From assembly GCA_037974965.1 (NCBI GenBank), contig JBBPFI010000001.1, positions 310,001 to 374,000 on the forward strand: DNA of 64,000 nucleotides, written 5' to 3'. Both the position numbers and the translations under genes were made by a program. The stretch comes from Dacryopinax spathularia (Eukaryota; Basidiomycota; Dacrymycetes; Dacrymycetales; Dacrymycetaceae). The notes under the pieces were generated by a model that saw nothing but the letters and a program-made list of their open reading frames with translations, had not been told where the DNA came from and ran no database searches. Positions 22,252 to 56,235 of the stretch are shown here, piece by piece (within the stretch, counting starts at the first letter, position 1; each line of letters opens with the position of its first letter).

Positions 22252-23720
22252 TCGTGGCGCTCACCTCCGACTTTTCGTGTTCTCCCTTGGTCTCCTGCAT
22301 CCCTTCGCATCGCATCGCCTACCGCCCTCGAGCGCGTTGTACCACCACCGCTTCGCTTCGTTCCGCCCGTCTTGTCTTCTCCCGCCGCCTGCCCCAGCGC
22401 ACGCCGCACCGTATCCCCAGCCCCGGTCCTGGACAATTCTCTTCTTCTCTTCCCTTCTTTCCCTTCGCTTTCAGCTTCTTCTTCCCACCAACCCCGGGGG
22501 AAAAGACCCTGCCGCCGCGCGTGCTCGTGCTCCCTTCCCCTCCCCCGGCACAAGCGCCAAGCATATATGCTATCATACCAAGGCCACCGCTCAGCCGGAA
22601 CGCCTTATCTTACCTTACACCTTCGCACACGTTGACTGATGTTGACGGAACTTGCACCCTCGCCTTAGTCGAGACCTTGATTTTTGACCCGTTCGCTGGC
22701 TTAGAACTACTTTACTGCTTTTGCTTTCTAGTTTTGGCTTGATCGCTTGATACGCTCTTGTCGTACTGTGTACTGCTGCTCTTTACCCAACCAAAAAAAA
22801 ATAGGACGATGCCGAACCACATTTGTGCTGTGTGTGCGAGTTGTGCCCAACAAATGACTCGTCTGTGAGAGCCTCCTATCTCCCCTGGCACTTGCGGTCG
22901 CATCACCAGGGACCCCGACCATGGAAGGCGTCCTTGTTTCCGAACGTCAACATCCACCATGCACGCAAATACAAGTCTTGGCGACAATCATCCCCCAACT
23001 CCGTACAACCCTCAAAGTCAACAATACTCTCTATAGCAATCACACACACAAGATCGCCCGTTCCCACTAAGTAAAGAAGCTGACTCGCCACCGCGAGCAC
23101 CCATCAAATACCGGCAGCTTCCGAATTCGCGTGGTTCCCGCTGATCTTGAATGATCCGCCCCGAACTACCACCTCATCGGCGGGCCCGATCCCTCGGCGC
23201 TTCCTGATGACTTCCGCCGGTTCTGGGGTGGATGCGTCTAGCCCCGGAAGTTGAGGCTGGATGGGCGGCGAGGGAAGACGAATACTGCCCTTCTTGGACT
23301 GACGCGTCTATCCCTTGGTTGATCAGACGCGTCCTTCCTTCCCTCGTCTTCCAGGCTGGTTCTCCCTTCTTCCTGGTTGGCAGAAGCTGCTCCTCGACCT
23401 GCAGCAAGGATCAGCGGTACACGGGCGTCGAGATGAAAGGCGTCGTTCAGGTTAATGGAGGAGGTGTTTCAGGGTTATTGTCAAGCTGATCTCAGGGTTG
23501 CCGCCAGGCCTTATCAGGCGAAAGGGCACAGCGGATCGTCCTGGATTCAGCATCGGCTTGAACCGGCTTTTCGTACGCGGCTTTTCAGTACCTTTCTCAC
23601 AGCTGTTTGCAGAACCGTTCTCAGACTATATTATAGCGCTGGCAATAGGCATCGTATTTATGATAATGACATGGACATTCCATATACATATTGAGGAGAG
23701 TCGTACCGCGCGGCTTGACT
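22252..23720. other. intergenic between CPL1-like copy A and the repeat cluster
   Basis: About 1.47 kb. The first 500 bases are a C/T-rich 3' flank with a perfect GCATATATGC at 22561-22570. No gene supported. The transition to the repeat/transposon cluster is near 23700; I could not see terminal inverted repeats or a target-site duplication. Confidence 0.4.
22561..22570. repeat. GCATATATGC palindrome, intergenic
   Basis: Perfect copy about 310 bp downstream of the CPL1-like copy A stop; one of three copies outside introns. Confidence 0.7.
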
Positions 23721-23923
23721 ATCACCTCCTTCTCAAGACACCTCCCGCCCGCCTCTGCAGACGGACAATCACCTCCTTCTCAAGACACCTCCCGCCCGCC
23801 TCTGCAGACGGACAATCACCTCCTTCTCAAGACACCTCCCGCCCGCCTCTGCAGACGGACAATCACCTCCTTCTCAAGACACCTCCCGCCCACCTCTGCA
23901 GACGGACAATCACCTCCTTCTCA
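23721..23923 (+). repeat. tandem array A, 47-bp unit, 5 copies
   Basis: Core starts at 23721, 23768, 23815, 23862 and 23909, exactly 47 bp apart. Each unit is the 18-nt core CAATCACCTCCTTCTCAA plus a locus-specific GACACCTCCCGCCCGCCTCT-type spacer. It lies directly 3' of the second transposon gene, whose stop codon is inside the last core copy. Confidence 0.9.
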
Positions 23924-25768
23924 ATCCTCATCCTCATCACCATCGCCCTCATCATCTCCTCCATCGTCCTCATCTTCATCCCCGTCTCCGCCCCAGCCGG
24001 GAAGAGTATCGTCCTCCAGGTTTCGACCTCCTGACAATCCCACTGTCGTTGTCTCCGCCTGCCACTCGAAGTCCTCCCCGGCCGCTTCCTCCACCGCCTC
24101 CTCGTCCTTGCCCTCTGGGAAAGCTTTCCTCTCTGCTTTCCAGATGCGCCGTATCCACCTGAATTGCTGGTATGTTAGCGCCCTGGGACCTTCTAACAGC
24201 CTTCTACTTACTCGGAAATCTGGTCTGCATCCTGGGCGCAGTGCTCTTCGATGCCGCGCAGGCTCGAGTCGACGTACTTCCAGTAGCTCGTAAGAGGGGG
24301 CACGCTCTCCGACTTGTGCGTGAACGGGTTGAGCACCGTCTGCTTCTCTTTGTCCATCTGGAATCGGAGGATTGACCGCTGAACGTGCAGGTCAGCGACC
24401 TGCCTTTCTTCAGCCAGAGGACTCACGAGCACTGCAATACGAGCCCAGTTTGCAGGTTCAAAACGAAAAGGCGCCGATTCCAGGACCAGTGCTTTGCGAG
24501 TGGCCGTGAGGCTCATTGCGAGCGTAGCTATGAGCTAGGTTCTTGGTCAGCAGCGGCGTAGACGTATCACTGACCGCCCACCTTGCCCTTGACCCATGAC
24601 TTCCGGTTGGAAAGCCGCTCGCTGAGGAAGGAAGAGAGCGCGTTGCGCTGCGCTTCTATCTGATATGTCGAGTCCGGGATCTTCAGTCGGTCCTTGTGCT
24701 TCTGGCAGTGTCGCTGAACCCTCGTCAGTATCTTGTCGATCACCAGGAGACAGGGTGTTGAGAAGGAGGTGATTGTCGATGCGAAGGGGGGCACGAGTTG
24801 AGGAGACAGGGTGTTGAGAAGGAGGTGAATGTCGATGCGGAGGGGGGCGCGAGTTGAGGAGACAGGGTGTTGAGAAGGAGGTGAATGTCGATGCGGAGGG
24901 GGGCGCAAGTTGAGGAGAGGGTGTTGAGAAGGAGGTGATTGTCGATGCGGAGGGGGGCGCGAGTTGCTTACCATGAGGGAGCGCATCATCGCTCTCGCGG
25001 AGTACTTGCCGACGCCTGGGTTCATGACAAAGCAGTAGATCTCTTTGGTGATCTCCTTCTAATGCAGTTGTCAGCGCCAGTCGCCTCGTATGAGTATCAC
25101 TTACTTGGCACGCTACCGTCAGCTTCCATGCCTCTTCATCTCGTTTCTTCATGGATGCGACCGTCTCCTGCAGCGTCGCGAGCTGGCACATCAGGTTCAA
25201 GTACGCTACCGTTGGGTCTGCCAGCCCCTCCCTCGCAACCTCCATGATCGCAGCCTCCTTGTCTTTCGGTACCTTCCACCGCGCTACAGCCCTCTGCGCA
25301 ACATCGCTCAGGTCTTTCTTTTTGGGGGCGCGGCTGCCCACGATCTCTCCCACCCCACGACGGGGGGCTCGCACGACCAGCGCTGCCTGCGCGAGGGAGG
25401 GTAGATCTCTGTACTCAATGAGACTGTCAGCAATGTTCCGCACAGTTGAGAAGGAAAGCACGCAACTCTTCATCGGAGAGCAGTCCTTCCCTGGCGTCCT
25501 GCTCTGGAGCGTGGATCCTCGGTCTCTTCTTAGCCACGACTCCCGGCCCCACAGATCCACCCTCCTCCATCTCTCTCCGCTCTCCCCTCGACCCGTTACC
25601 TCTCCTTTTCGCCCCTCCTCCCCCCCCAGCACTGTTCAGCGCAGCGCGGCCGTGAATTTGACTCGACGCCAAGTTGCTCGAGCTGCTATCTGCTGACGGA
25701 GTAGCGCGACCATCCTCGGTAGCAGCGGCAGACTCACCAATTAGGACAGTGTTGAGAAAGGCAGCCAT
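23921..25768 (-). CDS. transposon-associated protein, unrecognised (element gene 2)
   Basis: Seven exons (25768-25467, 25423-25105, 25058-24972, 24713-24582, 24534-24427, 24378-24212, 24158-23921) give 450 aa with every phase matching. The N-terminus is low-complexity with a basic nuclear-signal-like stretch (KKRPRIHAPEQ). The middle is helical (DLPSLAQAALVV, KDLSDVAQRAVARWKVPKDK, YLNLMCQLATLQETVASMKK), then GVGKYSARAMMRSLM, QRNALSSFLSERLSNRKSWV and NPFTHKSESVPPLTSYWKYV. The tail is highly acidic (DGDEDEDDGGDDEGDGDEDED). No nuclease motif seen. Five introns are 43-53 nt; the intron 24971-24714 is 258 nt because it holds array B. The stop codon TGA is formed by the TTGAGAAGG part of the adjacent repeat core. 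Confidence 0.55.
24758..24945 (+). repeat. tandem array B, 56-bp unit, 4 copies, inside an intron
   Basis: Core (complement orientation TTGAGAAGGAGGTGA) starts at 24758, 24814, 24870 and 24924; spacing 56, 56 and 54 bp. The spacer (CGATGCGGAGGGGGGCGCGA-type) differs from the other arrays. It sits in the 258-nt intron of element gene 2. Confidence 0.9.
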
Positions 25769-25962
25769 TCATAGAGCAGCAAAAGGGGGGTCAGCGTGCA
25801 AAAGGATAAAAGAGGATAAGGCAAAAACTCTATCGCCAGCAAAGCCCGTTCAACCTTTCCTGCCGGGACCTATTCCCTTGATGACACGTGGACATCCTTG
25901 ATGCTCACCTTCGCGCATCCTCTTACCGTTCGCATCGCCACTAGAAGTTCTCCGAGCTGGTC

Positions 25963-26220
25963 AACAATCACCTCCTTCTCAAGAGGCGATTGCGGTCAAG
26001 GGCCCAGATCGACAATCACCTCCTTCTCAAGAGGCGATTGAGGTCCAGCGCCCAGACCGACAATCACCTCCTTCTCAAGAGGCGATTGAGGTCCAGCACC
26101 CAGACCGACAATCACCTCCTTCTCAAGAGGCGATTGAGGTCCAGCGCCCAGACCGACAATCACCTCCTTCTCAAGAGGCGATTGAGGTCCAGCACCCAGA
26201 CCGACAGTCACCTCCTCAAC
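25963..26220 (+). repeat. tandem array C, 48-bp unit, 6 copies
   Basis: Core starts at 25963, 26011, 26059, 26107, 26155 and 26203, exactly 48 bp apart. Each unit holds the core followed by GAGGCGATTG, which nearly complements the core's start (CAATCACCTC), so each unit can fold into a hairpin with a 10-bp stem and 8-nt loop. It lies between the stop of element gene 1 and the start of gene 2. Confidence 0.9.
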
Positions 26221-26247
26221 ACCAACTCGTCCCATTAGCCGATCTTC

Positions 26248-29200
26248 CTAGAATACATAGCCATGGTTGTCCCACTCGTCTCCTACGGACTCGGCGGCAT
26301 TGTCGACCTGTTCTTCCCATGCCTGGCTCTCGTTCTCTGCGACTGGGTCCTTGGTCTGCCGGTTCTTGTCGAGCTTGAGCCTGGTCGCGAGCTGCAGTCT
26401 TGCCGCTTTGGACACCTTGTCGAACATCGCCGTCTTCAGCTTGTACGGGACCAGAGAGCGGATTAGGCCACCGTTATGGAAGCTGAACACGTTTAGCAAG
26501 AATGCTGAGTCGGACCGGTGAGAGATGAGCGTCTCCGTCGCTGATGTGATTTCTCCTTCTTGCCGCTTGCGCTTCGTAACTCGACCGGCGCAACCGTTGC
26601 CCAGAGAGCAGTCGTGTTGCACATTAACACAAGCAATGATATCCTGTTCGTCCCGTTCAGCTGTCTTGCGGTGATACGATCACTGCGGCATGGCGAACCT
26701 TGGGCTGAAGCAACATCTGCGCACCAGTGGGTATGAGCTGGGGGCAGGCCAGCTTGTCTTTCGCTTCTCCGACCCGGAACGGCTCTATCAGCACATGCCG
26801 ACGGCGGAACTGCTTGTCTGAGCGGGCGTTGTCCTGTTCGTCTACCAGTATCTCCCGAACTCTTCCGATGTGATTCTGCATCGCGATTAGCGCCAGCAAA
26901 CGATCAGACTGCAGAACTCACCGCCTCGTTCTTGAGATAGACCACAAAGGCGGATAAAGGGGCTCTATCTCCGTTTGTGGCCGTCACGGATAGCGCACGG
27001 CGTAGTTTCTTCGTCGAGGGATACTTCGCCGGGTAGTACCTTCCACACAGGCTGTCCGCCCAAGCCACATACTTGGTCGCAGAGAAGTCCAGAACAACAT
27101 CTAGCAATTGTTAGCTTGTTGTCTAAGAATGTGAGCATGGCGACCGACAATCACCTCCTTCTCAAGAGGAGATTGGGCGACTTACCTTTAACAGGCTGTT
27201 CGTCCTCAGATCGCAAGCCCAGGTGCTTCGCCCAATGTGGGTGATCTTCTAGGTGTCTGATAATGCCGGGAGACGCACAGACCCATTGTTGGACGGAGGA
27301 GTCGTACCAGTACCCGCCCTCGACCGTATGCCGTAGTCTGTCCGCGTTGGCAAAGGCACGACCGATATCGCGACTGGGTGCTTGGTGATTGCTGAACACC
27401 GAGAAGGTCCGAAAGACCTTGTTGAAAGACTCCCATCTCTCCACGCTGAAACCAAGCGCCGGCCCAAACGCTTCTATGTTGTCGGGCAGGTGTAGCAGGA
27501 TATGCGGTTTCGCCTTGTTGATGACGATGCTCGGTTCAACCGTAGCCATCGCTTGCAGGAGAGCATCTATCGCCAGTCCGAGCTCTTTCCGATAGCAGGC
27601 CCGGTCAGGAATGTCGTGCATCCACGCCAGAGAGAAGACCAGTCCAAGGATCACCCAGCACTCGAGAATCTCCGGCGTAGCGAGGTCGTAGAGGACGAAG
27701 ACCATAAGCTGCACCAGGTCCCGGAAGTGCTTGCCGTTCAAAGCACCTCGATACTGAAACACATAGCCCCAGTCGTACTCGGAGCGGGTCAGGCCGTCGG
27801 TGCTGAGCGACCGCAAGCGCATTTCGACCTGGGCCATCGGAGTGCCGGCTAATGGGCGGGATACGCCGTCATGCCTCGTTGCAGCGGGCATCAGCGATCT
27901 CCACGTCATCGTCCACATATACTTGATGACGCCGAGAGGACCCGTATGAAGTACCTCCACGGGCGTTTGCCGATGAATGTCGAGATCTGAATTAGCGTCA
28001 GCTCCTCGCGTCTAACCAGCGCGGATCATCACTCACAGTCCAGCTTAAGCAGCGGGTTGATACAACCCAGTCCTCCTCGAGAGTCGAAGTGCTCCATCAG
28101 GGCTGCCTCTTTCTCCCTCTTCGACCCCTCCGTCTTCCTGGCGATCTCTGCTAGCTCGTCCAACAGCGACTCAGCGACCTGGTCTTTAACGCCGTGCTGG
28201 GAGCGCATCTTCTCTATCTGAGCCAGCTTGCCGTGGCTCGTGCTGAGCTTCAGAAGGTTCTGCACGTGGTTGCGAGTCACCACGGCGCAGCGGGACGGTG
28301 CTATCTCGAAGAGAGCCGCATATCCCGTTGGTGAATGCTTGTAGGCCTTCGTGCCGCCCACGCTGCACATCCGGCAGAAGTGATTTGCTTTCAGCCCGCG
28401 GTGGCTGCATAGCTCGGCTTGTGCCGGGTTGTCCCCCGCGAAGAAAGCCGGCCAGGCGGTGAAGAGAAGCTCCGCATGCGTGTGAGGGTCGTAGGCGAGG
28501 GCGCCTTCTTCGGAAAGGAACCTGGAGCAGAGGTCAGCGGGTGTTGAGAAGGAGGAGATTGTCGGTCAGGGCACTCGACCGCAATCGCCTCTTGAGAAGG
28601 AGGTGATTGCCGGTCTGGGTGCTGGACCTCAATCGCCTCTTGAGAAGGAGGTGATTGTCGGTCTGGGCCCTTGACCGCAATCGCCTCTTGAGAAGGAGGT
28701 GATTGTCGATCTGGGCCCTTGACCGCAATCGCCTCTTGAGAAGGAGGTGATTGCCGATCCCTCCGCAGGCACTCACCTCAAGCGCTCGACCACCCCGCCA
28801 TACATGTCGACCGCAGACACTGACTTCGAACAGCTGACAAAGTGAATGTTGCGCTGTTTGTCGAGTTCTCTCCTGGGTCGAGCTAGGTTGGACATGCAGA
28901 TGATATTGTGTTTGCTCCACTTGCGAGATATGTTTCCCGAAACGTCATCAGCCCAGAGAGCGATGGGGACCGCTACGACTCTGCGACCTGCAGCTTTGAC
29001 ACGCATCGGGTGTGGCATCGCCTGTCGGATCCAAGCCTGCTCGTCCGGGAAGAACAGCTGGCCGCTTCGCAGATCGTGCAGAAGATCGAGATATGTGCTC
29101 TCTATGTCCTTGATGTTCTTCAGTATTCGGTTGTCCGTTCTGACCGTCAGCTTGCCCTGCAGCAGAGGTCAGCGTGCAGACAACAAGCCTCATAAACAAG

Positions 29201-30453
29201 CGTACCGTGCTGGAATCATGCTCCACTGCCCAGCCCCATGCGGCAATGTCGGCATCGTGTCCTGCTTGCGGCTCGCCCAGCTGAACCAACCGCTTCGGGA
29301 CGAAGTAACCCCCCGCGTGGAGTTGAACGAGCTCGTCCACAAAGATGTGCCGGCCGTTGTGGATGACCATCGGGGTCAGACAGCGGTCGGGCATGTCCCA
29401 TCCCCAGAATGAACCGTGCCACGCCTCGCGCATGAATCGGGTATTGACGACAGGATAGAATTGCATATGGCGACTCTTGACCGGATTTGACAGCTCCTGT
29501 GGCACAGGTCAGTCACTGTGCAGTACGACGACCCAATGCTTACCCGTCGCAGCAGATGGACCGGGTCATTAATGTAGTAGACGGTACCTTGAGGGGTTTG
29601 ATACCGTAGCTGCGGGTTGCCCATGGCCTCCAACGCCTCCTCCTGGAACTTGGCCAGGCGAGTGGGTTTAGGTACGCAGCTCCCGCCCGCTTCCTCCGCA
29701 TATCGCAGTATGCTCCTTGCTTGGCCCGCCGAGAACTGTTGATGGAGAGCGCCGAACTGCAGGTCAGCAAGGTGCACCTGACTGGTTGTCAGCGTGTTGA
29801 GAAGGAGGTGATTGTTGATAGAGATGTACCCCCTCGTCGGGATACGGGAACGTGTCCAGCTCCTCTGCTCGACCGAATAGACGATTCATACGCTCCTGAA
29901 CGCTCCAGGAACCGGTCTGCGATATCGCCGGCTCCTGCGGCGGAGCCCCCGTTGGCAAGAGGAGAGCACCAGCAGAGCGGTTTGGGTAGAGGTCGCAAAA
30001 CTCGCCTTGCAGGAACAGCTCGTCCTGCAAGGCGCTCGCCGAAGCAAGCTTATCCACCCCAGTACGCAGCCAACAGTCGTCGTTATCGGATAAGACAGGT
30101 TCGTCCCACTCGTACTCCCCCGATTGGGGCGGGGCTTGGTGGTCGGTGTAGCTGAAATCGCGATCGGAGGAGTCCTGGTCCTCGCTGCCCTCCCAAGCTG
30201 TGTTGCCCCCTGCCATTGCATCCTCGACCGGATATGTGGTAGCAGAAGCCTGCGGAGAATCGGCACCATGATCGTCATGCCAGCGCGCATGCATGATATG
30301 CTTCTCTGTAGCCGAATGCTTTGAGAGCTTGCTGCTCGGCGACATCTTCGGCTTGATGCACCAGTCGGGGCATACCAAGCAACGACCCTGAGTACCTCGA
30401 GCGTTTAGAGAGAAATGGGCTTCATTTAGACCAAGCAACTCATACACAGACAT
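26248..30453 (-). CDS. transposase-like protein of a family expanded in mushroom-forming fungi (element gene 1)
   Basis: Nine exons (30453-29830, 29756-29544, 29496-29206, 29156-28777, 28521-28037, 27986-27186, 27100-26922, 26875-26699, 26643-26248) give an intact 1181-aa protein. The N-terminus has a finger-like CLVCPDWC...KHSATEKHIMH (C-x2-C-x...H-x5-H). Later segments are typical of this family: TRFMREAWHGSFWGWDMPD, NGRHIFVDELVQL, VPIALWADDVSGNISRKWSK, FFAGDNPAQAELCSHRGLKA, DIHRQTPVEVLHTGPLGVIK, FGPALGFSVERWESFNKVFR and SNHQAPSRDIGRAFANADRL. Catalytic residues cannot be assigned by eye. Introns without the repeat core are 46-55 nt; those with it are 73, 85 and 255 nt. An alternative view is a domesticated or cargo gene. 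Confidence 0.6.
27150..27177 (+). repeat. single core copy with hairpin, intron 6 of element gene 1
   Basis: One core followed by GAGGAGATTG, forming the same kind of inverted repeat as arrays C and D. It lies within the 85-nt intron 27185-27101. Confidence 0.8.
28544..28757 (+). repeat. tandem array D, 48-bp unit, 5 copies, inside an intron
   Basis: Complement-orientation core at 28544, 28592, 28640, 28688 and 28736, 48 bp apart. The unit is the same as in array C but inverted relative to it. It fills intron 4 (28776-28522) of element gene 1. Confidence 0.9.
29797..29814 (+). repeat. single core copy, intron 1 of element gene 1
   Basis: TTGAGAAGGAGGTGATTG in the 73-nt intron 29829-29757, without tandem amplification. 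Confidence 0.85.
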
Positions 30454-30672
30454 TATCAAGTAAGCAGTTCCACGAAAGCAGGTTGGCGTCAGAATAGCAG
30501 TCCGATCAGAAGGCCGAGATAGAAGTTCCTGGTGAAGGCGTGTCCGAGAAGACCACGCGCCAGGACAACAAACAATGGCAGTGCGTCTGCACGGGCCCTG
30601 AACATCCTTTGCTCCTCGACGTCACCTCGACACGACCAGTTATCCGATCTCTACAAACCGCCGACAACCGCA

Positions 30673-31134
30673 ATGTTGCTCACAAGCTCGGTGCAGAGGA
30701 CTCTGGAGGGTGTTAGGATTCGGGTGGACGTGACAGCCGACGATGGAACAACGGACGAGCACTTTGTGAGTCTGGTCATCATCTCCTCGAGCTACGTGCT
30801 GACCATCAGCCAGGAAGTCCTCGTAAAGGTGCCGAAGGACAATTCGGGCGATGTGCTTGTGATCACCGAAGATGGCACGCTCCGGATCGTGCACGACACC
30901 AAACGATCGAAGTCGGCGAGCAACGGCACACAGGCGTGGCTGGCGCCCTATCAGTCCATCTCAGTATCGAAGAAGAGTGAGAGACATGCCGGGACGATGA
31001 GCGCGGTGGATGGGCAGCTGGGCAAGCGGAAGAGAGGTGGAGAGCATGCTGGGGATATGGGGAATGTACAGTTGACGGAGACGGCGGACCATACAGTGTA
31101 CTATACCGCCGAGGCGGAGAGGATGAACGCTTGA
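30673..31134 (+). CDS. small protein, unrecognised
   Basis: A single exon of 154 aa starting MLLTSSVQRTLEGVRIRVDV. The first 80 residues alternate hydrophobic and polar residues in a beta-rich pattern (VSLVIISSSYVLTISQEVLV, then DVLVITEDGTLRIVHDTKRS). A basic patch (GKRKRGGEH) could be a nuclear signal. It lies about 220 bp from, and divergent to, the transposon-like gene. The frame is open 141 bases upstream of this ATG from GTG and CTG triplets only, so the ATG at 30673 is preferred. No family recognised. Confidence 0.45.
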   Translation: MLLTSSVQRTLEGVRIRVDVTADDGTTDEHFVSLVIISSSYVLTISQEVLVKVPKDNSGDVLVITEDGTLRIVHDTKRSKSASNGTQAWLAPYQSISVSKKSERHAGTMSAVDGQLGKRKRGGEHAGDMGNVQLTETADHTVYYTAEAERMNA

Positions 31135-31350
31135 GTCTGTTGCCCTATGTCATTGATCTCATGACGGTGTCATATTTGTTCTAATCTCACGGAAGGAACG
31201 GAAGGATGTAACAAATGCTGCGCGCGGTTCAGGATAACGCATGGATACACAGTACTACTACGGAGCGAGCATTTGGGATCTACTAGCTAGACAAGACACG
31301 GTCTGACGACAGGGGCGCGATTCTCCGATTTACCACCACCTCGGTACAAC

Positions 31351-32652
31351 CTACACACCGCACAAATACGCGGTGCCGGCGCGATTGGCCCGATTCTTTC
31401 CCATCATGTTTGCCGCGATGTTCTCCACCACGTCGCAGGGAGCTGTCGCGACGCGGTAGAGCCACTGAGTTAGCTGAGCGCCGGTGTCGAAGCAGCTCTG
31501 GCGGATAAGCTCCGTGCGATCGGTCGCTGTGTTCTTGAGAAGGAGGTGATTGTCGATCTTGGCAGACTGGCCAGAGTGCTCATCCAGCCTGTTGAGAAGG
31601 AGGTGATTGTCGATCTTGGCAGACTGGTTGGAGTGCTCATCCAGCCTGTTGAGAAGGAGGTGATTGTCGATCTTGGCAGACTGGCCGGAGTGCTCATCCA
31701 GCCTGTTGAGAAGGAGGTGATTGTCGATCTTGGCAGACTGGTTGGAGTGCTCATCCAGCCTGTTGAGAAGGAGGTGATTGTCGATCTTGGCAGACTGGCC
31801 GGAGTGCTCATCCAGCCTGTTGAGAAGGAGGTGATTGTCGATCTTGGCAGACTGGCCGGAGTGCTCATCCAGCCTGTTGAGAAGGAGGTGATTGTCGATC
31901 TTGGCAGACTGGTTGGAGTGCTCATCCAGCCTGTTGAGAAGGAGGTGATTGTCGATCTTGGCAGACTGGTTGGAGTGCTCATCCAGCCTGTTGAGAAGGA
32001 GGTGATTGTCGATCTTGGCAGACTGGTTGGAGTGCTCATCCAGCCTGTTGAGAAGGAGGTGATTGTCGATCTTGGCAGACTGGTTGGAGTGCTCATCCAG
32101 CCTGTTGAGAAGGAGGTGATTGTCGATCTTGGCAGACTGGTTGGAGTGCTCATCCAGCCTGTTGAGAAGGAGGTGATTGTCGATCTTGGCAGACTGGCCA
32201 GAGTGCTCATCCAGCCTGTTGAGAAGGAGGTGATTGTCGATCTTGGCAGACTGGCCAGAGGGCTCATCCAGCCTGTTGAGAAGGAGGTGATTGTCGATCT
32301 TGGCAGACTGGTTGGAGCGCTCGTCGTGGTGCGCATCGAGGAACTCGATGATTGCCTCCACGAGAGCCTCGTCATTCTCCTTCCCGCACCCGATCCCCCT
32401 CACAAGCCCGATGACACGATCAACCAGCTCTTCAGCAATGTTGAGAGGGGCCGTAGCAGCAGCATAGGCCTTCTGAGAGAGATCGACGCCGATCGCATAG
32501 CACGCCTCGCGGCGATCCACCGGAGAAGAGAGGGACGTGCTGTCGGTGATGCGAACCTTGTCGCCAAGGACACGGATGGTAAAATCCGGCAAGACCTCTA
32601 CGAACATCTTCTCGTTGCTGTTGGTGATGTCGATGTACAGAGGCTTCGACAT
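31351..32652 (-). CDS. repeat-containing protein with a translated 19-aa tandem array
   Basis: A single frame of 433 aa. Residues 1-115 (MSKPLYIDITNSNEKMFVEV ... EALVEAIIEFLDAHHDE) are non-repetitive. Then come 14 copies of a 19-residue unit, NQSAKIDNHLLLNRLDEHS with N/G variants, encoded by array E (57 bp, so in frame). The last 65 residues are non-repetitive and resemble part of the N-terminal domain: AAATAPLNIAEELVDRVIG against YRVATAPCDVVENIAANMMG. This suggests a duplicated domain split by the array. No family recognised. The array could instead be spliced out, but I see no clear donor or acceptor at its edges. Confidence 0.5.
   Translation of the reverse strand: MSKPLYIDITNSNEKMFVEVLPDFTIRVLGDKVRITDSTSLSSPVDRREACYAIGVDLSQKAYAAATAPLNIAEELVDRVIGLVRGIGCGKENDEALVEAIIEFLDAHHDERSNQSAKIDNHLLLNRLDEPSGQSAKIDNHLLLNRLDEHSGQSAKIDNHLLLNRLDEHSNQSAKIDNHLLLNRLDEHSNQSAKIDNHLLLNRLDEHSNQSAKIDNHLLLNRLDEHSNQSAKIDNHLLLNRLDEHSNQSAKIDNHLLLNRLDEHSGQSAKIDNHLLLNRLDEHSGQSAKIDNHLLLNRLDEHSNQSAKIDNHLLLNRLDEHSGQSAKIDNHLLLNRLDEHSNQSAKIDNHLLLNRLDEHSGQSAKIDNHLLLKNTATDRTELIRQSCFDTGAQLTQWLYRVATAPCDVVENIAANMMGKNRANRAGTAYLCGV
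31535..32310 (+). repeat. tandem array E, 57-bp unit, 14 copies
   Basis: TTGAGAAGGAGGTGATTGTC recurs every 57 bp from 31535 to 32276 with near-perfect conservation; variation is mostly GGCC/GGTT and a single base near the unit end. Three reading frames across it are open because 57 is a multiple of three and the unit lacks stops in them. Confidence 0.95.
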
Positions 32653-33278
32653 AATGTGAACCTGTGGATTCAAGAGCGGAGAGTGGCTAAGAGGAGGTTC
32701 TGTTATCGCGGTCAGCCACCTTAACGCCCACGCCCTCCGACGGGCACGCACCAAGTCGAATCGATGAGATTGTCTGTATGCCAGGAGTGAGTAGGGTAAT
32801 ATACAATATGAGCTGAGCATACTCACAGACTTTGGGATAGTGCTTAGGTATACTCAGAATAGTTGCTTCGAGGTAGACGTCGATTGCGAAGTCGAGGACT
32901 TCGAGCTGGACACGGGTGAAGGCCCGGCAGCGCCATCTGAGTCCGTGCTCCGCGTGATACGCCAAACCCCTGACACCATTGATATCAACAATGCTCGACA
33001 ATGTAATTAAAGCTTCAATTTTGCTTGTATTTACTAGTCCTTTTGGGTGCATAAATTACAGGTTATTGACTGCTCAAATGTGCAATAATCTGGAGAGTTA
33101 TGAAGTAAAGTGGCGAGGAATGGGCGAGCTTAACCCTCACGTGAGACAGGGGTCCCGAACAAGCGAAGACCCTACATGCGTGTGCCTCGAGGCCGCCGCT
33201 CGACTCTTTAACATCAACCACCACCTCCCGCTCTGCCCCGCTCTCTTATAACCCTTTTGAAGACATCGACGACCGAAA
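32653..33278. other. intergenic, with a possible upstream exon
   Basis: Probable shared promoter of divergent genes. A minus-strand open frame from an ATG at 33052 (MHPKGLVNTSKIEALITLSS) reads to about 32830, where a GTGAGT donor follows; it could be a first exon joined to the repeat gene or a gene remnant. Support is weak and I do not call it. Confidence 0.3.
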
Positions 33279-34218
33279 ATGGATACGCCCACTGCCGCTG
33301 CGAACGACGACTCGGCGAACGTCGCGAACGACGAGGCGGCGAACGTCGCGAAGCCGTTGAAGCTCAAGGTGCTGGTCGACTGGCTCGCGAGGAGGGACGG
33401 GGAGTCGAGCTCCCAACCCGCGAACGAAGCCGAGGGAGCTGCCAACGAGGCGGCTTCCGACGACAGCGACTGGGGCGACGAAGGACAGGATCTGGGCGTC
33501 GAGGAGCAGGAGGAAGACGAGCTCGAGCTCATGCTCGATGAGGAGGCCGCCCTGCAGGGGATCGCGCTGCAGGTGGTGAGTCCGATCTGGCCAGTCTGCC
33601 AAGATCGACAATCACCATCATATGCGAGGTGTATGCTAATGTTCTCAGTAGCTGTCGGCGACCGTGGATGGTGTCTCGGGCACCACGGTCGCTCAACCTT
33701 CCGAGGTCGTGCCCATGGTGCGCACAAGCCGTACGCGCGAGCAGCGGGACGCCGAAGAGCGCCTGTACGACCAGCTCCGCCGCCGGCACATGCAGAGGCG
33801 TGGCGCCAAGACCTTTCGCAGCTGGGTCTTGTGCGTCTTTGGCTGCGCTGACCCCGCCGTCACTGGATGCGGGCATTGTCTCGAGGACGCCCGCTCCTGC
33901 GGCTGGATCTGCAAAGGGGGCTACCTCTTCTCCCTCAAGAAGGCGAGCCCGAAGGACATCTTGCGCGCGCTGGCCGGCGTGCTCATCTGGGCGGTGATCG
34001 CCATCCTGGCGGTCTACGGGTTCAAGGGTGAGTAGTTTCCATTATTCTACCTTCCTACCTGCAGCTGACAATGTTTGTACGTAGGCGGCAAGTGGCTTTG
34101 GACCCACATCGACATCACCTTCGTGCACGGCTCGCTCACGATCGGCTGGGTGGCTCCCGAAAACACCACGACGATAGACAACGCCTTGACGAACTCGACG
34201 ATGAAGCTCCTGGCGTAG
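33279..34218 (+). CDS. single-pass membrane protein, unrecognised
   Basis: Three exons (33279-33575, 33652-34027, 34085-34218) give 268 aa. The N-terminal half is acidic and Ala/Asn-rich (DSDWGDEGQDLGVEEQEEDE). A basic stretch follows (RTREQRDAEERLYDQLRRRH), then a Cys-rich loop (CVFGCADPAVTGCGHCLEDA...CGWIC) and one clear transmembrane helix (ILRALAGVLIWAVIAILAVY). The last exon encodes KWLWTHIDITFVHGSLTIGW. Intron 1 (33576-33651, 76 nt) carries a partial copy of array E's unit. No family recognised. The intron boundary is fixed by an in-frame TAG just before exon 2. Confidence 0.5.
33578..33611 (+). repeat. partial core copy in intron 1 of the membrane-protein gene
   Basis: CTGGCCAGTCTGCCAAGATC followed by GACAATCACC matches 30 bases of the array E unit (complement strand), ending inside the core. 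Confidence 0.8.
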
Positions 34219-34330
34219 GTTCTGCGATAACCCCTCCACGCGATACCTTTCTCTTTCTCTGCAATGTATTCCCGGTAGCGCTGCACGATGAATCAAATGC
34301 TTGTTGAGTCTTGACTATACGCGGCTGACG

Positions 34331-34352
34331 GGTGAGAAGGCGGTGATTGTCG
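34331..34352 (+). repeat. degenerate core copy downstream of the membrane-protein gene
   Basis: GTGAGAAGGCGGTGATTGTC differs from the core complement by two or three bases. It lies about 115 bp after the stop at 34218. Confidence 0.6.
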
Positions 34353-34804
34353 ATCGCGCATTTGGTATTATACTTTAACAATAATGACATTGATAACCCT
34401 ACCTAATGCTAAACTAAGCCTGAACAGCGGGCGAGCAACGTCTTATCTGTGCCTTGACGACTAAAGCTGAACGAGGCCTGAACAACGCCTGATCTCAGAC
34501 ACCGGAGCCGACAACCTTGTCCGCGCCTGATCCTCCTTTACCCGTGTACTCTGTCGGCATGCGCTTTCGTAGCCCGCTTCGAAGCTATTTCGAGGCTGCT
34601 GCTGACGTCGGATCGGCCATTAGCGCCTGAGCGCACTTTTCACGCTACGTTGTCGTCTCGTACGACTCACGGCTTGTCCTCTTGCCGTCCATCTAGCGTC
34701 GTCGGCGAAGATCATCCGACACCGGTCTACGAGCTCTACGGCGCTTTTTGAAGACGATTATCTGCCGTTTCTTAGCGGCTGACGTCGGATCGGCCGCTTG
34801 AAGC

Positions 34805-46262: not shown

Positions 46263-47396
46263 TTAGACACTCTTGGCGAATGTCACCGAGGACTGAGAAA
46301 TTCCGATTAATTTGCATATATCGGCAACTTCCTCATCACTGAGATTTCTCGGCCTCTGATTTTCACCCCTAGCGCGCAACGACAGAAATAGGCCCAGACC
46401 TCCGTGGCGTTTTATGCCATAGAAGGCGTCAATGCAATTGTTCTTCGTCTGGCTTCTGATTCTCTCCACAAGCTCATCAAGCTGTCCTTCCTTGTAGTCC
46501 TGTCCTTCCGTACCCAAATACCTCTTGATATCGTCCGGGGTAATCTCGGCCGCTTTGACTTTGACGTGGTTGCCGCCAGTCCGAACACAATCGACGATCG
46601 GCCGATCGCGGGCGATCGTCTCGTCGCTCTGCAGTGTGGGCCGGTTTAGCACCTGCGCACGCTCGGAAGAGGGGACGGAAGCGAGGTAGGAACGCACCTG
46701 GATCGTCGCATCTTCGGTTTGTGGCTGCTTCTCCTGAGGGAGGGCGTTGGTAGGTGCGTCTGTTGTGCCGTTGCTCTTTGCCGCCACTGGCTGGGTTTGA
46801 GGGTAGGCGGTCACGAGGGTCGGGATGAGGCCGTCCGGGCGGTCAGAGATGAGGGGAGCGAGGAATGCATCGGCGATATTGAGTTTTGTTGAGCTTGTGT
46901 CGGAGGTCGTGAGCTGGCTGAGGGGGATGATAAACGGTACGCCGAGGGAAGCGGCGGAGCGAATCGTTTCCTCCGTTGGGGGTTGGTCGCAGAGCACTAG
47001 AAGGTCGCCTTTGAATGATTGTTGGAATGACTCGATCGCTGGATTTTCCAAGGCTTCGTTGAAGTGCAGGAGGACAGCGGCTGCGTCGGAGCGGTTGGAG
47101 TCTTTCCCCAGCGTGAAACGCTGTACGAGCCTATGACTAGGCAAGCCAGCAGAGAGAGCCTCGTCATACGCCGGCGAAGGGAGGATCACCCGATCCGCAC
47201 CTCCGTCGAGCCAAGTAATGACCTGGTCGACCGAAGGCTGCTCGTCGGCAGAACAGAGGATAGTGTAGTTGCATGATGTTGGTACGCTGCTTGTGTCGGC
47301 AGAGGAAGGGAAGAGGACATGACCCAGCCGGTATGCAGGTTGGATAGCGTCAGAGGAGAGGTCGTCAATATAGGGCAGAATAATCGGAGGCGCCAT
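46263..47396 (-). CDS. chimeric, internally deleted HIS4 paralogue
   Basis: An intact 377-aa frame. Residues 1-200 match the N-terminal domain of the full HIS4 at 53507 ([20 protein letters not shown] and on to TLVTAYPQ). Then the cyclohydrolase and pyrophosphatase domains are missing, and the frame resumes in the linker (KSNGTTDAPTNALPQEKQPQ) and the first 40 residues of histidinol dehydrogenase (RAQVLNRPTLQSDETIARDR). The last about 100 residues (EITPDDIKRYLGTEGQDYKE ... NLSDEEVADICKLIGISQSS) are unrelated to HIS4. All catalytic regions of HIS4 are absent. It may be a degenerating copy or a new protein; the open frame and absence of stops are notable. Confidence 0.6.
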   Translation of the reverse strand: MAPPIILPYIDDLSSDAIQPAYRLGHVLFPSSADTSSVPTSCNYTILCSADEQPSVDQVITWLDGGADRVILPSPAYDEALSAGLPSHRLVQRFTLGKDSNRSDAAAVLLHFNEALENPAIESFQQSFKGDLLVLCDQPPTEETIRSAASLGVPFIIPLSQLTTSDTSSTKLNIADAFLAPLISDRPDGLIPTLVTAYPQTQPVAAKSNGTTDAPTNALPQEKQPQTEDATIQVRSYLASVPSSERAQVLNRPTLQSDETIARDRPIVDCVRTGGNHVKVKAAEITPDDIKRYLGTEGQDYKEGQLDELVERIRSQTKNNCIDAFYGIKRHGGLGLFLSLRARGENQRPRNLSDEEVADICKLIGISQSSVTFAKSV

Positions 47397-52989: not shown

Positions 52990-53506
52990 TTTGGGTTATT
53001 GTCTTGTGGTGTTGAAGCTGGGATGCGATCGGTGGGGCGTTGGTATGTGCTATAGGTGAGATGGGTGGTGTGGATCGGTGGCTGTTGGCGAGGTGGGTTG
53101 TCTTGCGCTGTTGGAATGGGACGTTCGTTATCCGGCCTTCAGTCGATCATAACAAGTTCGCGATTGCTGCTCCTGTCTCTTCACGTCTCAGCGCTCCAAT
53201 CATAGTAAAACAAAGGTTCGAAGCTGACCGGAATGCAACTCCAGCGACTCAGTCAGTCCACAGTCCAGCGCCAAGCCCATCTTCGCCCATTCCACCTCAG
53301 TGGCAGTGCCGTGATCGGCCCCTCCCCCGATCACTGAGGTGAAGCAAATTCCTTCTCCATTTGAGAACCCTGACCCGCTTCATTGCCCATCGCTTGGAGG
53401 GGATTGGAGCGGAGTGCTTTGGCTGACTCGACGATATCATCCTCTCCTCCCACTTCTCCTCCAGCTACAACCACCACCACTTCTGCTACTACTTTGGAAA
53501 GGAACT
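52990..53506. promoter_or_regulatory. divergent promoter region, HIS4 side
   Basis: 517 bases between the truncated IME4 copy and intact HIS4; inverted counterpart of 47397-47910. A C/T-rich leader (CTCCTCCCACTTCTCCTCCA) precedes the HIS4 start. In-frame open sequence upstream of 53507 contains no better start. Confidence 0.5.
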
Positions 53507-56235
53507 ATGGCACCCCCGATCATTCTGCCGTATATCGACGACCCCTCCGCCGACGCCCTCGAAGCTGCGTACAGGCTTGGGCATGTCCTCCTCCCTTCCT
53601 CTGCCGACCCGAGCAGCATCCCAGCGTCCTGCAACTACTCAATCCTCTGCTCTGCCGACGAGCAGCCCTCAGTTGACGAAGTCACTGCTTGGCTTGATGG
53701 GGGTGCAGATCGAGTCATCCTCCCTTCGCCGGCGTACGACGATGCTCTCTCTGCTGGCTTGCCGAGTCAGAGACTGGTGCAGCGTTTCACGCTAGGGAAG
53801 GACTCCAACCGCTCCGACGCAGCTGCTGTCCTCCTTCACTCCAAAGAAGGCCTGGGAGGTCAAGCGATCAAGTCGTTCCAACAGTCTTTCAAGGGCGACC
53901 TTCTGGTGCTCTACGACCAACCCCCAACGGAGGAAATGATCCGCTCCGCCGCCTCGCTCGGCGTACCCTCTATCATCCCACTCAGCCAGCTCACCGCCTC
54001 CGACACAAGCTCAACAAAACTCAATATCGCCGAAGCGTTCCTAGCGCCTATCATCTCCGACCGCCCGGACGGCCTCATCCCGACAATCGTCACTGCCTAC
54101 CCTCAATCCGGGCGTTCACTCGGTCTCGTCTACTCTTCTCGCGAGAGCGTCCGCTATGCCTTGTTGTCGGGCAAGGGCACCTATTTCTCCCGGAAACACG
54201 GGCTCTGGAAGAAGGGCGAAACCAGTGGAGCGACGCAGGACTTGGTCAGGTTGAGCGCGGACTGTGATGCCGACTGTCTGGAATTCGAAGTTGTGCAACA
54301 CGGCGCTGGGTTCTGTCACCTCAACACCGCCTCCTGTTTCGGCCCCTACTCCGGTCTCGCGGCGCTCGAACAAACTCTGCAAGCGAGGAAAGCGAGTGCG
54401 CCGGAGGGGAGTTATACGGCGAGACTGTTTGGAGATGAGGAGTTGTTGAGGAGCAAGATTATGGAAGAGGCGGATGAGCTCTGTCGTGCGCGGACGAAGG
54501 AAGAGGTCGCTTTTGAGGCGGCTGATCTGGTTTATTTCGCACTGGCGAAATGTGTCAGTATGGGCGTTGGGGTGGTGGATATTGAACGGAACTTGGATAA
54601 GAAGGCGAGGAAAGTGACGCGGAGAAAGGGGGATGCGAAGCCTCAGTGGAGCCAGTCCAAGACGAATGGCTCTGCTTCCTCCTCCCAGGCGGGGAAGAGC
54701 AACGGCACAGCAGACGCGCCGACCAACCCCCTCCCCGAGGAAAAGCAGCCCAAAACGGAAAGCGCACCGATCCAAATGCGTTCCTACGACCTCGCTTCCG
54801 TTCCACTTTCCGAGCGGGCGCAGATGCTCAAGCGCCCTACACTCAAGAGCGAGGAGATGATCGCCCGCGTTAGGCCGATCGTCGATTCTGTCCGGAGTGG
54901 CGGCGACCAGGCTCTGAAGGAGCTGACGGAGAAGTTCGACAAGGCCAAGCTGGACGAGGTCGTCATTCGCCCGCCATTTTCGCCCGAGTCGATGAAGTTG
55001 CCTGAAGAGGTGAAGAAAGCGATTGATCAGGCGTATAAGAACGTCTATGCGTTTCATGCTGCTCAGGCCGACCGTGGCCCCCTAGAAGTCGAGACCATGC
55101 CCGGCGTCGTCTGCTCTCGCTTCGCCCGCCCGATCGCCCGCGTGGGGCTGTACGTGCCCGGCGGCACCGCTGTCTTGCCCAGTACAGCACTCATGCTCGG
55201 CATCCCCGCCCAGGTCGCAGGGTGCAAAGAGATCGTCCTCGCCACCCCACCCAGGCCAGACGGGTCCATCGTCCCAGAAGTGATGTACGTTGCCTCCCTC
55301 GTCGGCGCCACTTGTATCCTCAAAGCCGGCGGGGCGCAAGCTGTAGCTGCTATGGCCTACGGCACAGCGAGTGTGCCCAAAGTGGACAAGATCTTTGGGC
55401 CGGGGAATCAGTGGGTCACGGCTGCTAAGATGTTGGTGCAGAATGATACGGATGCGCTGGTGGCTATTGATATGCCTGCTGGACCGAGTGAGGTGTTGGT
55501 TGTGGCGGATCATACTGCCGATCCGGAGTTTGTGGCCGCCGATCTGCTGAGTCAAGCAGAGCACGGCGTGGACTCGCAGGTCGTGCTCGTTGCCGTCGAC
55601 CTCACCGCCGACCACCTGCGCGCCATTGAAGAGGCCGTGGATCGCCAGGCCAAGGCGTTACCGAGAGTGGAGATTATGAGGGTGTCGGTAGGAAAGAGCT
55701 TGATTGTGAAAGTGAAGGATGTGAGGGAGGCGATGAACTTCTCGAATGAGTATGCGCCGGAGCATTTGATCTTGCATTTGGAGGATGCGCCCGCTGCGGT
55801 GGGGTTGGTGCAGAATGCGGGAAGCGTGTTTGTGGGCGCTTATTCGCCTGAGAGGTGCGTCTATTCCATCTCCCTTTTTCTCCCTTCCAGTCCCTTTCTC
55901 TCCCTTCCATATCGTTTCTGTCCATGCTTTCGATGTCTATGTGGTATGGGTTTTGTTATGGAATGGTTGATGCTTACTTTCATGGCAGCTGCGGCGACTA
56001 CGCCTCCGGCACGAACCACACCCTCCCAACAAACGGCTTCGCCCGCCAATTCAGCGGAGTAAACACCCAAAGTTTCCAAAAGCATATTACTTCACAGCGC
56101 GTGACGAAGGAGGGGTTGGGCGTGTTGGGCCCGGTAGTCGTGACGCTGGCGGAATGTGAGGGGTTGGGGGCGCATGCGAATGCTGTTAGGGTTAGGTTGG
56201 AGGCGTTAGAGCGGGCGAGGAAGAGCGCTGTTTGA
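53507..56235 (+). CDS. HIS4: trifunctional histidine biosynthesis enzyme HIS4
   Basis: Catalyses steps 2, 3, 9 and 10 of histidine synthesis. Two exons (53507-55854, 55989-56235) give 864 aa. Residues 1-200 are the fungal N-terminal domain. Phosphoribosyl-AMP cyclohydrolase is near 201-282 ([41 protein letters not shown] cited in part). Phosphoribosyl-ATP pyrophosphohydrolase is near 282-385 ([33 protein letters not shown]). Histidinol dehydrogenase is near 441-864 ([69 protein letters not shown], then [20 protein letters not shown]). All three domains look complete. The start at [12 protein letters not shown] is shared with the paralogue at 47396. Confidence 0.95.

What the first reader, a model, noticed from the sequence alone, without database searches (positions are those of the whole stretch)
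23721..34352. An 18-nt core dispersed through 10.6 kb and amplified with different local flanks
CAATCACCTCCTTCTCAA or its complement occurs about 38 times, all between 23.7 and 34.4 kb and nowhere else I can see in the window. It exists as single copies (27150, 29797), degenerate copies (33600, 34331) and five tandem arrays with units of 47, 56, 48, 48 and 57 bp. The core is constant, while the rest of each unit is mostly locus-specific. This suggests a short sequence that first lands at a site and then drives tandem duplication together with its neighbour DNA. I know of no named element with this behaviour. Calling it a mobile or recombinogenic sequence is inference.
Basis: partly seen in the sequence, partly recalled or inferred. 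Interest (0 to 1): 0.9.

Follow-up and report, generated by a model that had tools for sequence, protein, structure and literature searches.

The report
Local family of core-sharing fungal minisatellites
In one 10-kilobase stretch of what looks like a fungal chromosome, a DNA sequence of about 24 letters has been copied, whole or in part, into at least nine nearby places, more than half of them in predicted introns, and at five of them it has grown into a tandem-repeat array, so several likely stages in the birth of repeat arrays stand side by side.

Summary
In detail: 31 exact copies, 36 within three mismatches (shuffles: 0.07), plus two damaged ones, at nine sites in 10.6 kb of apparently fungal DNA, none elsewhere in the window. 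Five sites are arrays (units 47, 56, 48, 48, 57 bp). The shared tract is really 23-24 bp, (G)ATCGACAATCACCTCCTTCTCAA, with fairly sharp ends. Spacers are unrelated between arrays, except that the two 48-bp arrays share their unit, inverted, but not their outer flanks. Four of five arrays stop at the 3' end of a core. Five sites lie in predicted introns of 52/73, 76, 85, 255 and 258 bp, against 46-57 bp for seven core-free ones; taking repeats out on paper gives 45-55 bp in four of five on the favourable reading. Two sites are 31- and 34-nt fragments of array units. Best explanation: short local repair-type insertions seed sites, arrays grow core to core, and array sequence is exchanged through cores. 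This resembles minisatellites with a shared core and published array-birth models; introner and transposon tests were not met. Evidence that the core is better conserved than spacers is weak (p 0.02-0.2). No genome or sister strain was available, so genome-wide spread and true empty sites are untested.

The parts
23717..23924 (+). Array A1: 5 cores, 4 spacers of 29 bp (unit 47), apparently intergenic; begins within 2 bp of a core and ends at one
24745..24966 (-). Array A2: 4 cores, unit 56 bp (one unit 54), sense orientation in a predicted 258-bp intron (24714-24971) of gene A; edges not at the core
25965..26219 (+). Array A3: 6 cores (last with a 3-bp deletion), 5 spacers of 30 bp (unit 48), between genes A and B; same unit as A4
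27142..27175 (+). Single core with flanks of the 48-bp unit (34 nt, 1 mismatch), antisense in a predicted 85-bp intron (27101-27185) of gene B; GGCGAC on both sides of about 31 bp
28544..28753 (-). Array A4: 5 cores, 4 spacers (unit 48), sense in a predicted 255-bp intron (28522-28776) of gene B; begins and ends at a core
29797..29819 (-). Single core plus the 5-nt extension (here ATCAA), sense in the first predicted intron of gene B (29778-29829, 52 bp, or 29757-29829, 73 bp; both keep the frame open)
31535..32322 (-). Array A5: 14 identical cores, unit 57 bp, in frame in an ORF (gene C, ATG to stop 31351-32652); on its 3' side it ends at a core
33586..33616 (+). 31-nt exact fragment of a 57-bp unit, from mid-spacer to mid-core, in a predicted 76-bp intron of gene D (33576-33651)
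34332..34354 (-). Degenerate single core (2 mismatches) with the ATCGA extension, downstream of gene D

Best explanation
This is a local minisatellite family. Short pieces (about 24-34 bp) of one sequence were copied into nearby DNA, in either orientation, by repair-type template copying or capture at breaks (inferred), and kept mainly in introns and between genes. Where two cores lay close together, or where core homology let an array be copied in from another site, slippage and unequal exchange built tandem arrays of core plus spacer. Because the core is the only stretch shared by all sites, exchange between sites may keep it uniform while spacers drift, which would explain near-identical cores with sharp edges next to unrelated spacers. 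Shown here: the copies and their places, the array edges, the related array pair, the unit fragments and the longer predicted introns. Inferred: the repair mechanism, the order of events and the homogenisation.
For: All sites lie within 10.6 kb; for 9 sites spread evenly over 64 kb the chance is about 5e-6, which points to local copying. Outside the region, of 92 exact repeat pairs of at least 15 nt, 60 lie in the duplicated 43-54.5 kb stretch; the other 32 are at most 20 nt long, include two self-palindromes, and only 5 exceed 16 nt or are such palindromes listed among the longest. Arrays A3 and A4, 2.4 kb apart and inverted, match at 96% over 210 nt and have an identical first spacer, but not the same outer flanks. 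4 of 5 arrays show 0 bp of unit homology beyond the 3' edge of the last core and 3 of 5 at most 2 bp beyond the 5' edge of the first; an incomplete terminal unit is what the noncontiguous-repeat model of array birth predicts (PMC3389668, passages). 33609 is a 31-nt exact piece of a 57-bp unit with ends in mid-spacer and mid-core, and 27148 a 34-nt piece of the 48-bp unit, so fragments without element-like ends occur at new places. Core-bearing introns are longer than seven core-free ones (52/73, 76, 85, 255, 258 against 46, 46, 47, 48, 49, 50, 57 bp), and gene B stays open over 1058 (or 1051) residues with these introns removed. Short templated insertions (most 5-34 bp for local inverted ones), and insertions from repetitive DNA, are documented in yeast (PMC11724301, abstract and passages).
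Against: Repair insertions should have ragged ends, yet the shared tract stops at the same places at 8 sites; homogenisation was added to explain this, and its own support is weak: variable columns in cores are 3 of 90 against 20 of 166 in spacers (p 0.02) only if the damaged last core of A3 and gap columns are left out; with that core's substitution counted p is 0.07, with gap columns too 0.22. No donor for the first core is identified. A2 departs from the edge rule on both sides and A5 on one. A2's intron does not reduce to the usual length (74 bp without the stretch from first to last core, 36 bp without the whole array), and the shorter form of 29797's intron would leave 34 bp. Introns are predicted, not confirmed by RNA.
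Confidence: 0.45

Rival explanations
1. A genuine mobile micro-element of 23-24 bp (or a 28-31-bp hairpin form) with defined ends that inserts as a unit and then seeds arrays.
For: Common ends at 8 sites with mostly unrelated flanks. At 27148 a 6-bp direct repeat GGCGAC flanks about 31 bp, and removing insert plus one repeat gives a 48-bp intron. 27148 and the 48-bp unit fold as a hairpin at the core, z -2.6 and -2.0.
Against: The other 7 of 8 sites have flanking repeats of 0-4 bp; a 6-bp one occurs at 4% of random places, so one in eight is unremarkable. A TCAACA repeat at 29797 that overlaps the core itself, seen by eye, was not part of that test. The hairpin is at the core only in the two 48-bp-type sequences of the five folded. 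33609 is a fragment with other ends. No candidate enzyme: 0 Pfam families for most of gene B, both ends of gene C and exon 1 of gene D; gene A was scanned only as an ORF.
Confidence: 0.2
2. One ancestral array that was broken up and inverted by rearrangements, the present sites being its remains.
For: All sites are local; A3 and A4 are clearly related arrays.
Against: Sites sit inside separate introns of a gene whose exons read through open over 1058 residues, and spacers of A1, A2, A3/A4 and A5 are not significantly alike; rearrangement does not easily place remnants in introns of a collinear gene.
Confidence: 0.1
3. The core is a functional motif (protein-binding or splicing-related) kept by selection, and arrays grew around it.
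For: Core columns may vary less than spacer columns (3 of 90 against 20 of 166, p 0.02; but 0.07-0.22 with the damaged A3 core counted). 4 of 5 intronic sites carry the CAATCACC strand in sense.
Against: It occurs in both orientations, in introns, between genes and in an ORF; identical 18-mers with unrelated flanks need copying rather than convergence; 4 of 7 predicted introns of gene B lack it.
Confidence: 0.08
4. Introner-like elements: the repeats spread as introns or by reverse splicing.
For: 5 of 9 sites are in predicted introns although introns are, by a rough estimate of mine, about 9% of the region (binomial 5e-4 on that estimate; sites are not fully independent).
Against: Host introns share no splice-site-bearing sequence; one core is antisense, three sites lie outside predicted genes and one is in an ORF. 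Without the core most are of normal length, so the intron was probably there first.
Confidence: 0.04

Closest known systems
Animal minisatellites sharing a core of about 16 bp (Jeffreys; described in PMC3909909, passages)
   Same: Several arrays whose units share a short conserved core; the core recurs at different loci.
   Different: Here the core is exact over 18 bp and bounded, the loci found lie within 10.6 kb, and single-copy and fragment stages are visible. The sequence differs (comparison from memory).
Minisatellite birth by slippage at noncontiguous repeats (Taylor and Breden 2000) and by short flanking direct repeats (Haber and Louis 1998); known here only as described in PMC3389668 and PMC6947457 (passages); the first paper itself is not held
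   Same: Arrays ending in an incomplete unit that equals the short repeat: on the 3' side in 4 of 5 arrays.
   Different: The founding repeat here is itself present at many sites and is longer (23-24 bp) than the 5-10 bp of the Haber-Louis model.
Templated insertions at double-strand breaks in yeast (PMC11724301, abstract and passages)
   Same: Short inserts, local or distant, often inverted, also from repetitive DNA.
   Different: There they are separate repair products; here one sequence recurs at nine sites with common ends.
Megasatellites of Candida glabrata (PMC4556013, passages)
   Same: A fungal tandem-repeat class whose formation and propagation is unexplained.
   Different: Motifs of about 100-400 bp in genes; here 47-57 bp and mostly outside coding sequence.
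Introners / introner-like elements (PMC9860276, passages; PMC4457414, search listing only)
   Same: Repeated sequence found in several introns.
   Different: No near-identical introns, no splice sites carried, also found outside introns.

Membership tests
Minisatellite (tandem array, unit about 10-100 bp) | Head-to-tail repeats of a unit in that size range | tested here: met
   Five arrays, 4.0-13.8 copies, unit 47-57 bp
Minisatellite family with shared core | Same short core in units of otherwise different arrays | tested here: met
   35 copies with at most 1 mismatch; spacers of A1, A2, A3/A4 and A5 not significantly alike
Minisatellite family with shared core | Length polymorphism between individuals | not testable with these tools
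   No whole genome held and no other strain in the collections used
Noncontiguous-repeat birth model | Terminal unit incomplete and equal to the founding short repeat | tested here: inconclusive
   3' side: 4 of 5 arrays end at the core edge; 5' side: 3 of 5 within 2 bp; A2 on neither side
DNA transposon / MITE | Target site duplications of constant length | tested here: not met
   1 of 8 sites with 6 bp (4% of random places); the others 0-4 bp
DNA transposon / MITE | Terminal inverted repeats | tested here: not met
   A hairpin at the core in 2 of 5 folded sequences, both of the 48-bp type
Introner | Near-identical introns in several genes | tested here: not met
   Introns differ outside the core, and 4 of 9 sites are not in predicted introns
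Known RNA family | Rfam match | tested here: not met
   0 matches at gathering score in the window

The most novel reading that the evidence does not exclude
A 23-24-bp sequence with fixed ends and no genes spreads by itself over short distances (for example as circles or small single strands released from its own arrays), goes preferentially into introns, and each landing can nucleate a new minisatellite that then exchanges whole arrays with its siblings through the core: it would be among the smallest self-propagating DNA units described.
Probability: 0.12. Interest if true: 0.8.

Novelty: new variant of a known kind. Interest (0 to 1): 0.45.

Why it matters
How a minisatellite is born and how related arrays come to lie at different places is poorly understood: one paper says that postulated mechanisms explain only 6% of transposon-derived tandem repeats in human (PMC3389668, abstract passage), another that formation and propagation of yeast megasatellites have no clear explanation (PMC4556013, passage). 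This locus shows single copies, unit fragments, small arrays, a larger in-frame array and a related array pair within 10.6 kb, with intron lengths as a possible record of insertion. With a few sister strains the order of events would be directly testable.

Tried and rejected
Bacterial or viral origin of the core: one exact 18-mer in viral contigs (L001) lies in AT-rich sequence without the ATCGA extension and looks like chance; the 20-mer GACAATCACCTCCTTCTCAA gave 0 matches in genome contigs, which holds bacteria and archaea only. The inner ATCACCTCCTT resembles the tail of bacterial 16S rRNA (recalled); Rfam found nothing at gathering score and I take it as coincidence.

One ancestral unit for all arrays: a first flank test (23 pairs x 2 sides, 200 shuffles each; 8 of 46 comparisons at 0 of 200) seemed to link A1-A2, A1-A3 and A3-A5, but its 38-nt flanks took in the 5-nt extension and, for the shorter spacers, the next core. 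With these removed only the two variants of the 48-bp spacer match, so I withdrew that idea.

Stronger conservation of the core than of the spacers: p 0.02, but 0.07 or 0.22 when the damaged A3 core is counted without or with gap columns, so I no longer lean on it; for this I lowered the best explanation from 0.48 to 0.45 and the functional-motif rival from 0.10 to 0.08. Target site duplications as proof of transposition and a hairpin as a general feature were not supported. A relative of part of gene B in viral contigs: none. Pfam on nine ORFs gave two hits above their curated cut-offs, both on gene C (Lock_Gag1-like, 9.1e-16; a CUB model, 1.3e-6); neither has a single stretch passing and both fall in the repeat array, so I take them as artefacts; one search gave none for gene B, the two ends of gene C and exon 1 of gene D.

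Literature: 10 searches. 13 papers hold the 12-mer CCTCCTTCTCAA and none the 16-mer of the complement; by their titles they concern other matters and were not read. No fungal minisatellite family of this behaviour showed up in the parts of the listings shown (several listings were longer than shown); subscription papers are mostly not in the library.
Full report
WHAT IS THERE. The window (64 kb, 57% G+C from the base counts) looks like nuclear DNA of a fungus, probably a basidiomycete; this is my reading. It carries an L5 ribosomal protein gene of eukaryotic type, ORFs that I recognise from memory as HIS4-like and other fungal genes, and genes split by introns of about 50 bp. No whole genome is held. 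The 18-mer CAATCACCTCCTTCTCAA occurs 31 times exactly and 36 times with up to three mismatches, all between 23719 and 34349; shuffles give 0.07 on average and never more than 2. Two damaged copies bring the total to 38. They fall into nine sites: arrays A1 (23.7 kb), A2 (24.8), A3 (26.0), A4 (28.6) and A5 (31.5-32.3), single copies at 27148 and 29797, a cut copy at 33609 and a degenerate one at 34332. Orientation is mixed.

THE SHARED TRACT. Aligning the outer flanks of the first or only core at eight sites (33609 left out) shows the five preceding bases ATCGA conserved as well (6-7 of 8 in each column), a G before them more weakly (6 of 8, p 0.05); on the other side the second base after the core is A in 6 of 8 (p 0.003). 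The remaining columns of the 28 tested show nothing consistent, only scattered values at p 0.02-0.05. The founding unit is therefore about 23-24 bp with fairly sharp ends. With it removed, spacers of the A1, A2, 48-bp and 57-bp types are not significantly alike; only the two variants of the 48-bp spacer match. An earlier, laxer test had suggested more and is withdrawn.

RELATIONS BETWEEN SITES. A3 and A4 are inverted relatives, 96% over 210 nt, with an identical first spacer and a shared type of variant further in, but with different outer flanks. 27148 carries 34 nt of the 48-bp unit with one mismatch, and 33609 carries 31 nt of a 57-bp unit exactly, from mid-spacer to mid-core. Two kinds of copying are thus suggested: arrays with edges at cores, and short fragments with other ends.

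ARRAY EDGES. Unit homology continues 0 bp beyond the last core in A1, A3 (allowing for its 3-bp deletion), A4 and A5, and 0-2 bp before the first core in A1, A3 and A4. A2 continues 25 bp and 13 bp, and A5 29 bp on its 5' side. Arrays bounded by the short repeat are what the noncontiguous-repeat model predicts (as described in PMC3389668).

INTRONS AS A POSSIBLE RECORD OF INSERTION. With seven predicted introns removed, gene B (minus strand, from 30459) stays open over 1058 residues, or 1051 with the longer first intron, as far as 26700. Four of its introns have no core (46, 47, 49 and 50 bp); three have one (52 or 73, 255 and 85 bp). Two core-free introns of gene A are 46 and 48 bp, one of gene D 57 bp. 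Gene A's A2 intron is 258 bp, and gene D's intron with the fragment is 76 bp, the only one of two acceptors that keeps the frame. By arithmetic removal leaves 45 bp in A4, 45 bp in gene D, 48 bp at 27148 (54 bp if GGCGAC is not counted), 55 bp in the longer form at 29797 (34 bp in the shorter), and 74 or 36 bp for A2. Intron lengths favour insertion into introns that already existed, without proving it; no RNA evidence was available.

CORE AGAINST SPACER. Inside arrays, 3 of 90 core columns and 20 of 166 spacer columns vary (counted with the 2-bp indel of A2 realigned by hand, gap columns and the damaged last core of A3 left out; p 0.02). Counting that core's substitution gives p 0.07, and counting gap columns too 0.22. 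So better conservation of the core inside arrays is not established; it is also partly circular, since the core was chosen for being shared. What stands is that cores at sites with unrelated flanks are almost identical.

BACKGROUND. Outside the region the window holds 92 pairs of exact repeats of at least 15 nt; 60 lie within the duplicated stretch 43-54.5 kb, and the other 32 are 15-20 nt long, several of simple sequence. Inside the region 527 pairs were found, all but one containing a piece of the core by the script's test, the exception being A2 unit sequence.

MECHANISM. The best reading is local copy-paste of short pieces, then array growth between cores and core-guided exchange. Locality (about 5e-6 for nine sites by chance), mixed orientation, and fragments of 31-34 nt resemble templated insertions at breaks, mostly 5-34 bp for local inverted ones in yeast, with others drawn from repetitive DNA (PMC11724301, abstract and passages). 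The repair step is inferred. The strongest rival is a micro-element with defined ends; it explains the borders but lacks constant target duplications (1 of 8 sites), general inverted repeats and an identified enzyme. Break-up of one array, a functional motif, and introners are less likely for the reasons given under the rivals. The intron share of sites (5 of 9) is higher than my rough 9% estimate of intron content would give and is not fully explained by any reading.

WHAT IT IS CALLED. It meets the tests made here for minisatellites and for a minisatellite family with a shared core, and not those for transposons and introners. I call it a new variant of a known kind because the core is nearly exact and bounded, the family in this window is confined to 10.6 kb, and single copies, fragments, arrays and a related array pair stand next to each other. 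Whether it extends beyond the window is unknown.

Noticed in passing
43-54.5 kb: Segmental duplications: about 43.4-45.3 kb repeated directly at 49.7-51.3 kb, and about 46.8-49.5 kb repeated inverted at 52.1-54.1 kb; two HIS4-like ORFs lie there, 46263-47396 (shorter) and 53339-56062 (gene name recalled).
   Followed up: no
3912, 8664, 9004, 17293, about 34803, 52583, 56326, 59171: A second dispersed short motif, the palindrome GCATATATGC with varying neighbours; 8664 and 17293 share a 20-mer.
   Followed up: no
5160 and 5338: An exact 20-mer CCCACGTGGTTCAACTCTAC occurs twice 178 bp apart.
   Followed up: no
34601 and 34778: An exact 18-mer GCTGACGTCGGATCGGCC occurs twice 177 bp apart, just outside the core region.
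   Followed up: no
31351-32652 (-): The 57-bp array is in frame in an ORF (14 cores, 19-residue repeat); openness is weak evidence of coding because other frames over the array are open too.
   Followed up: partly
about 26.2-30.5 kb (-): Gene B stays open over more than 1000 residues with its predicted introns removed but has no Pfam match; from memory it resembles a multicopy gene type of mushroom-forming fungi, which no call tested.
   Followed up: partly
25965-26219 and 27142-27175: The 48-bp unit and its fragment can form a hairpin at the core as single-stranded DNA (z -2.0 and -2.6).
   Followed up: partly
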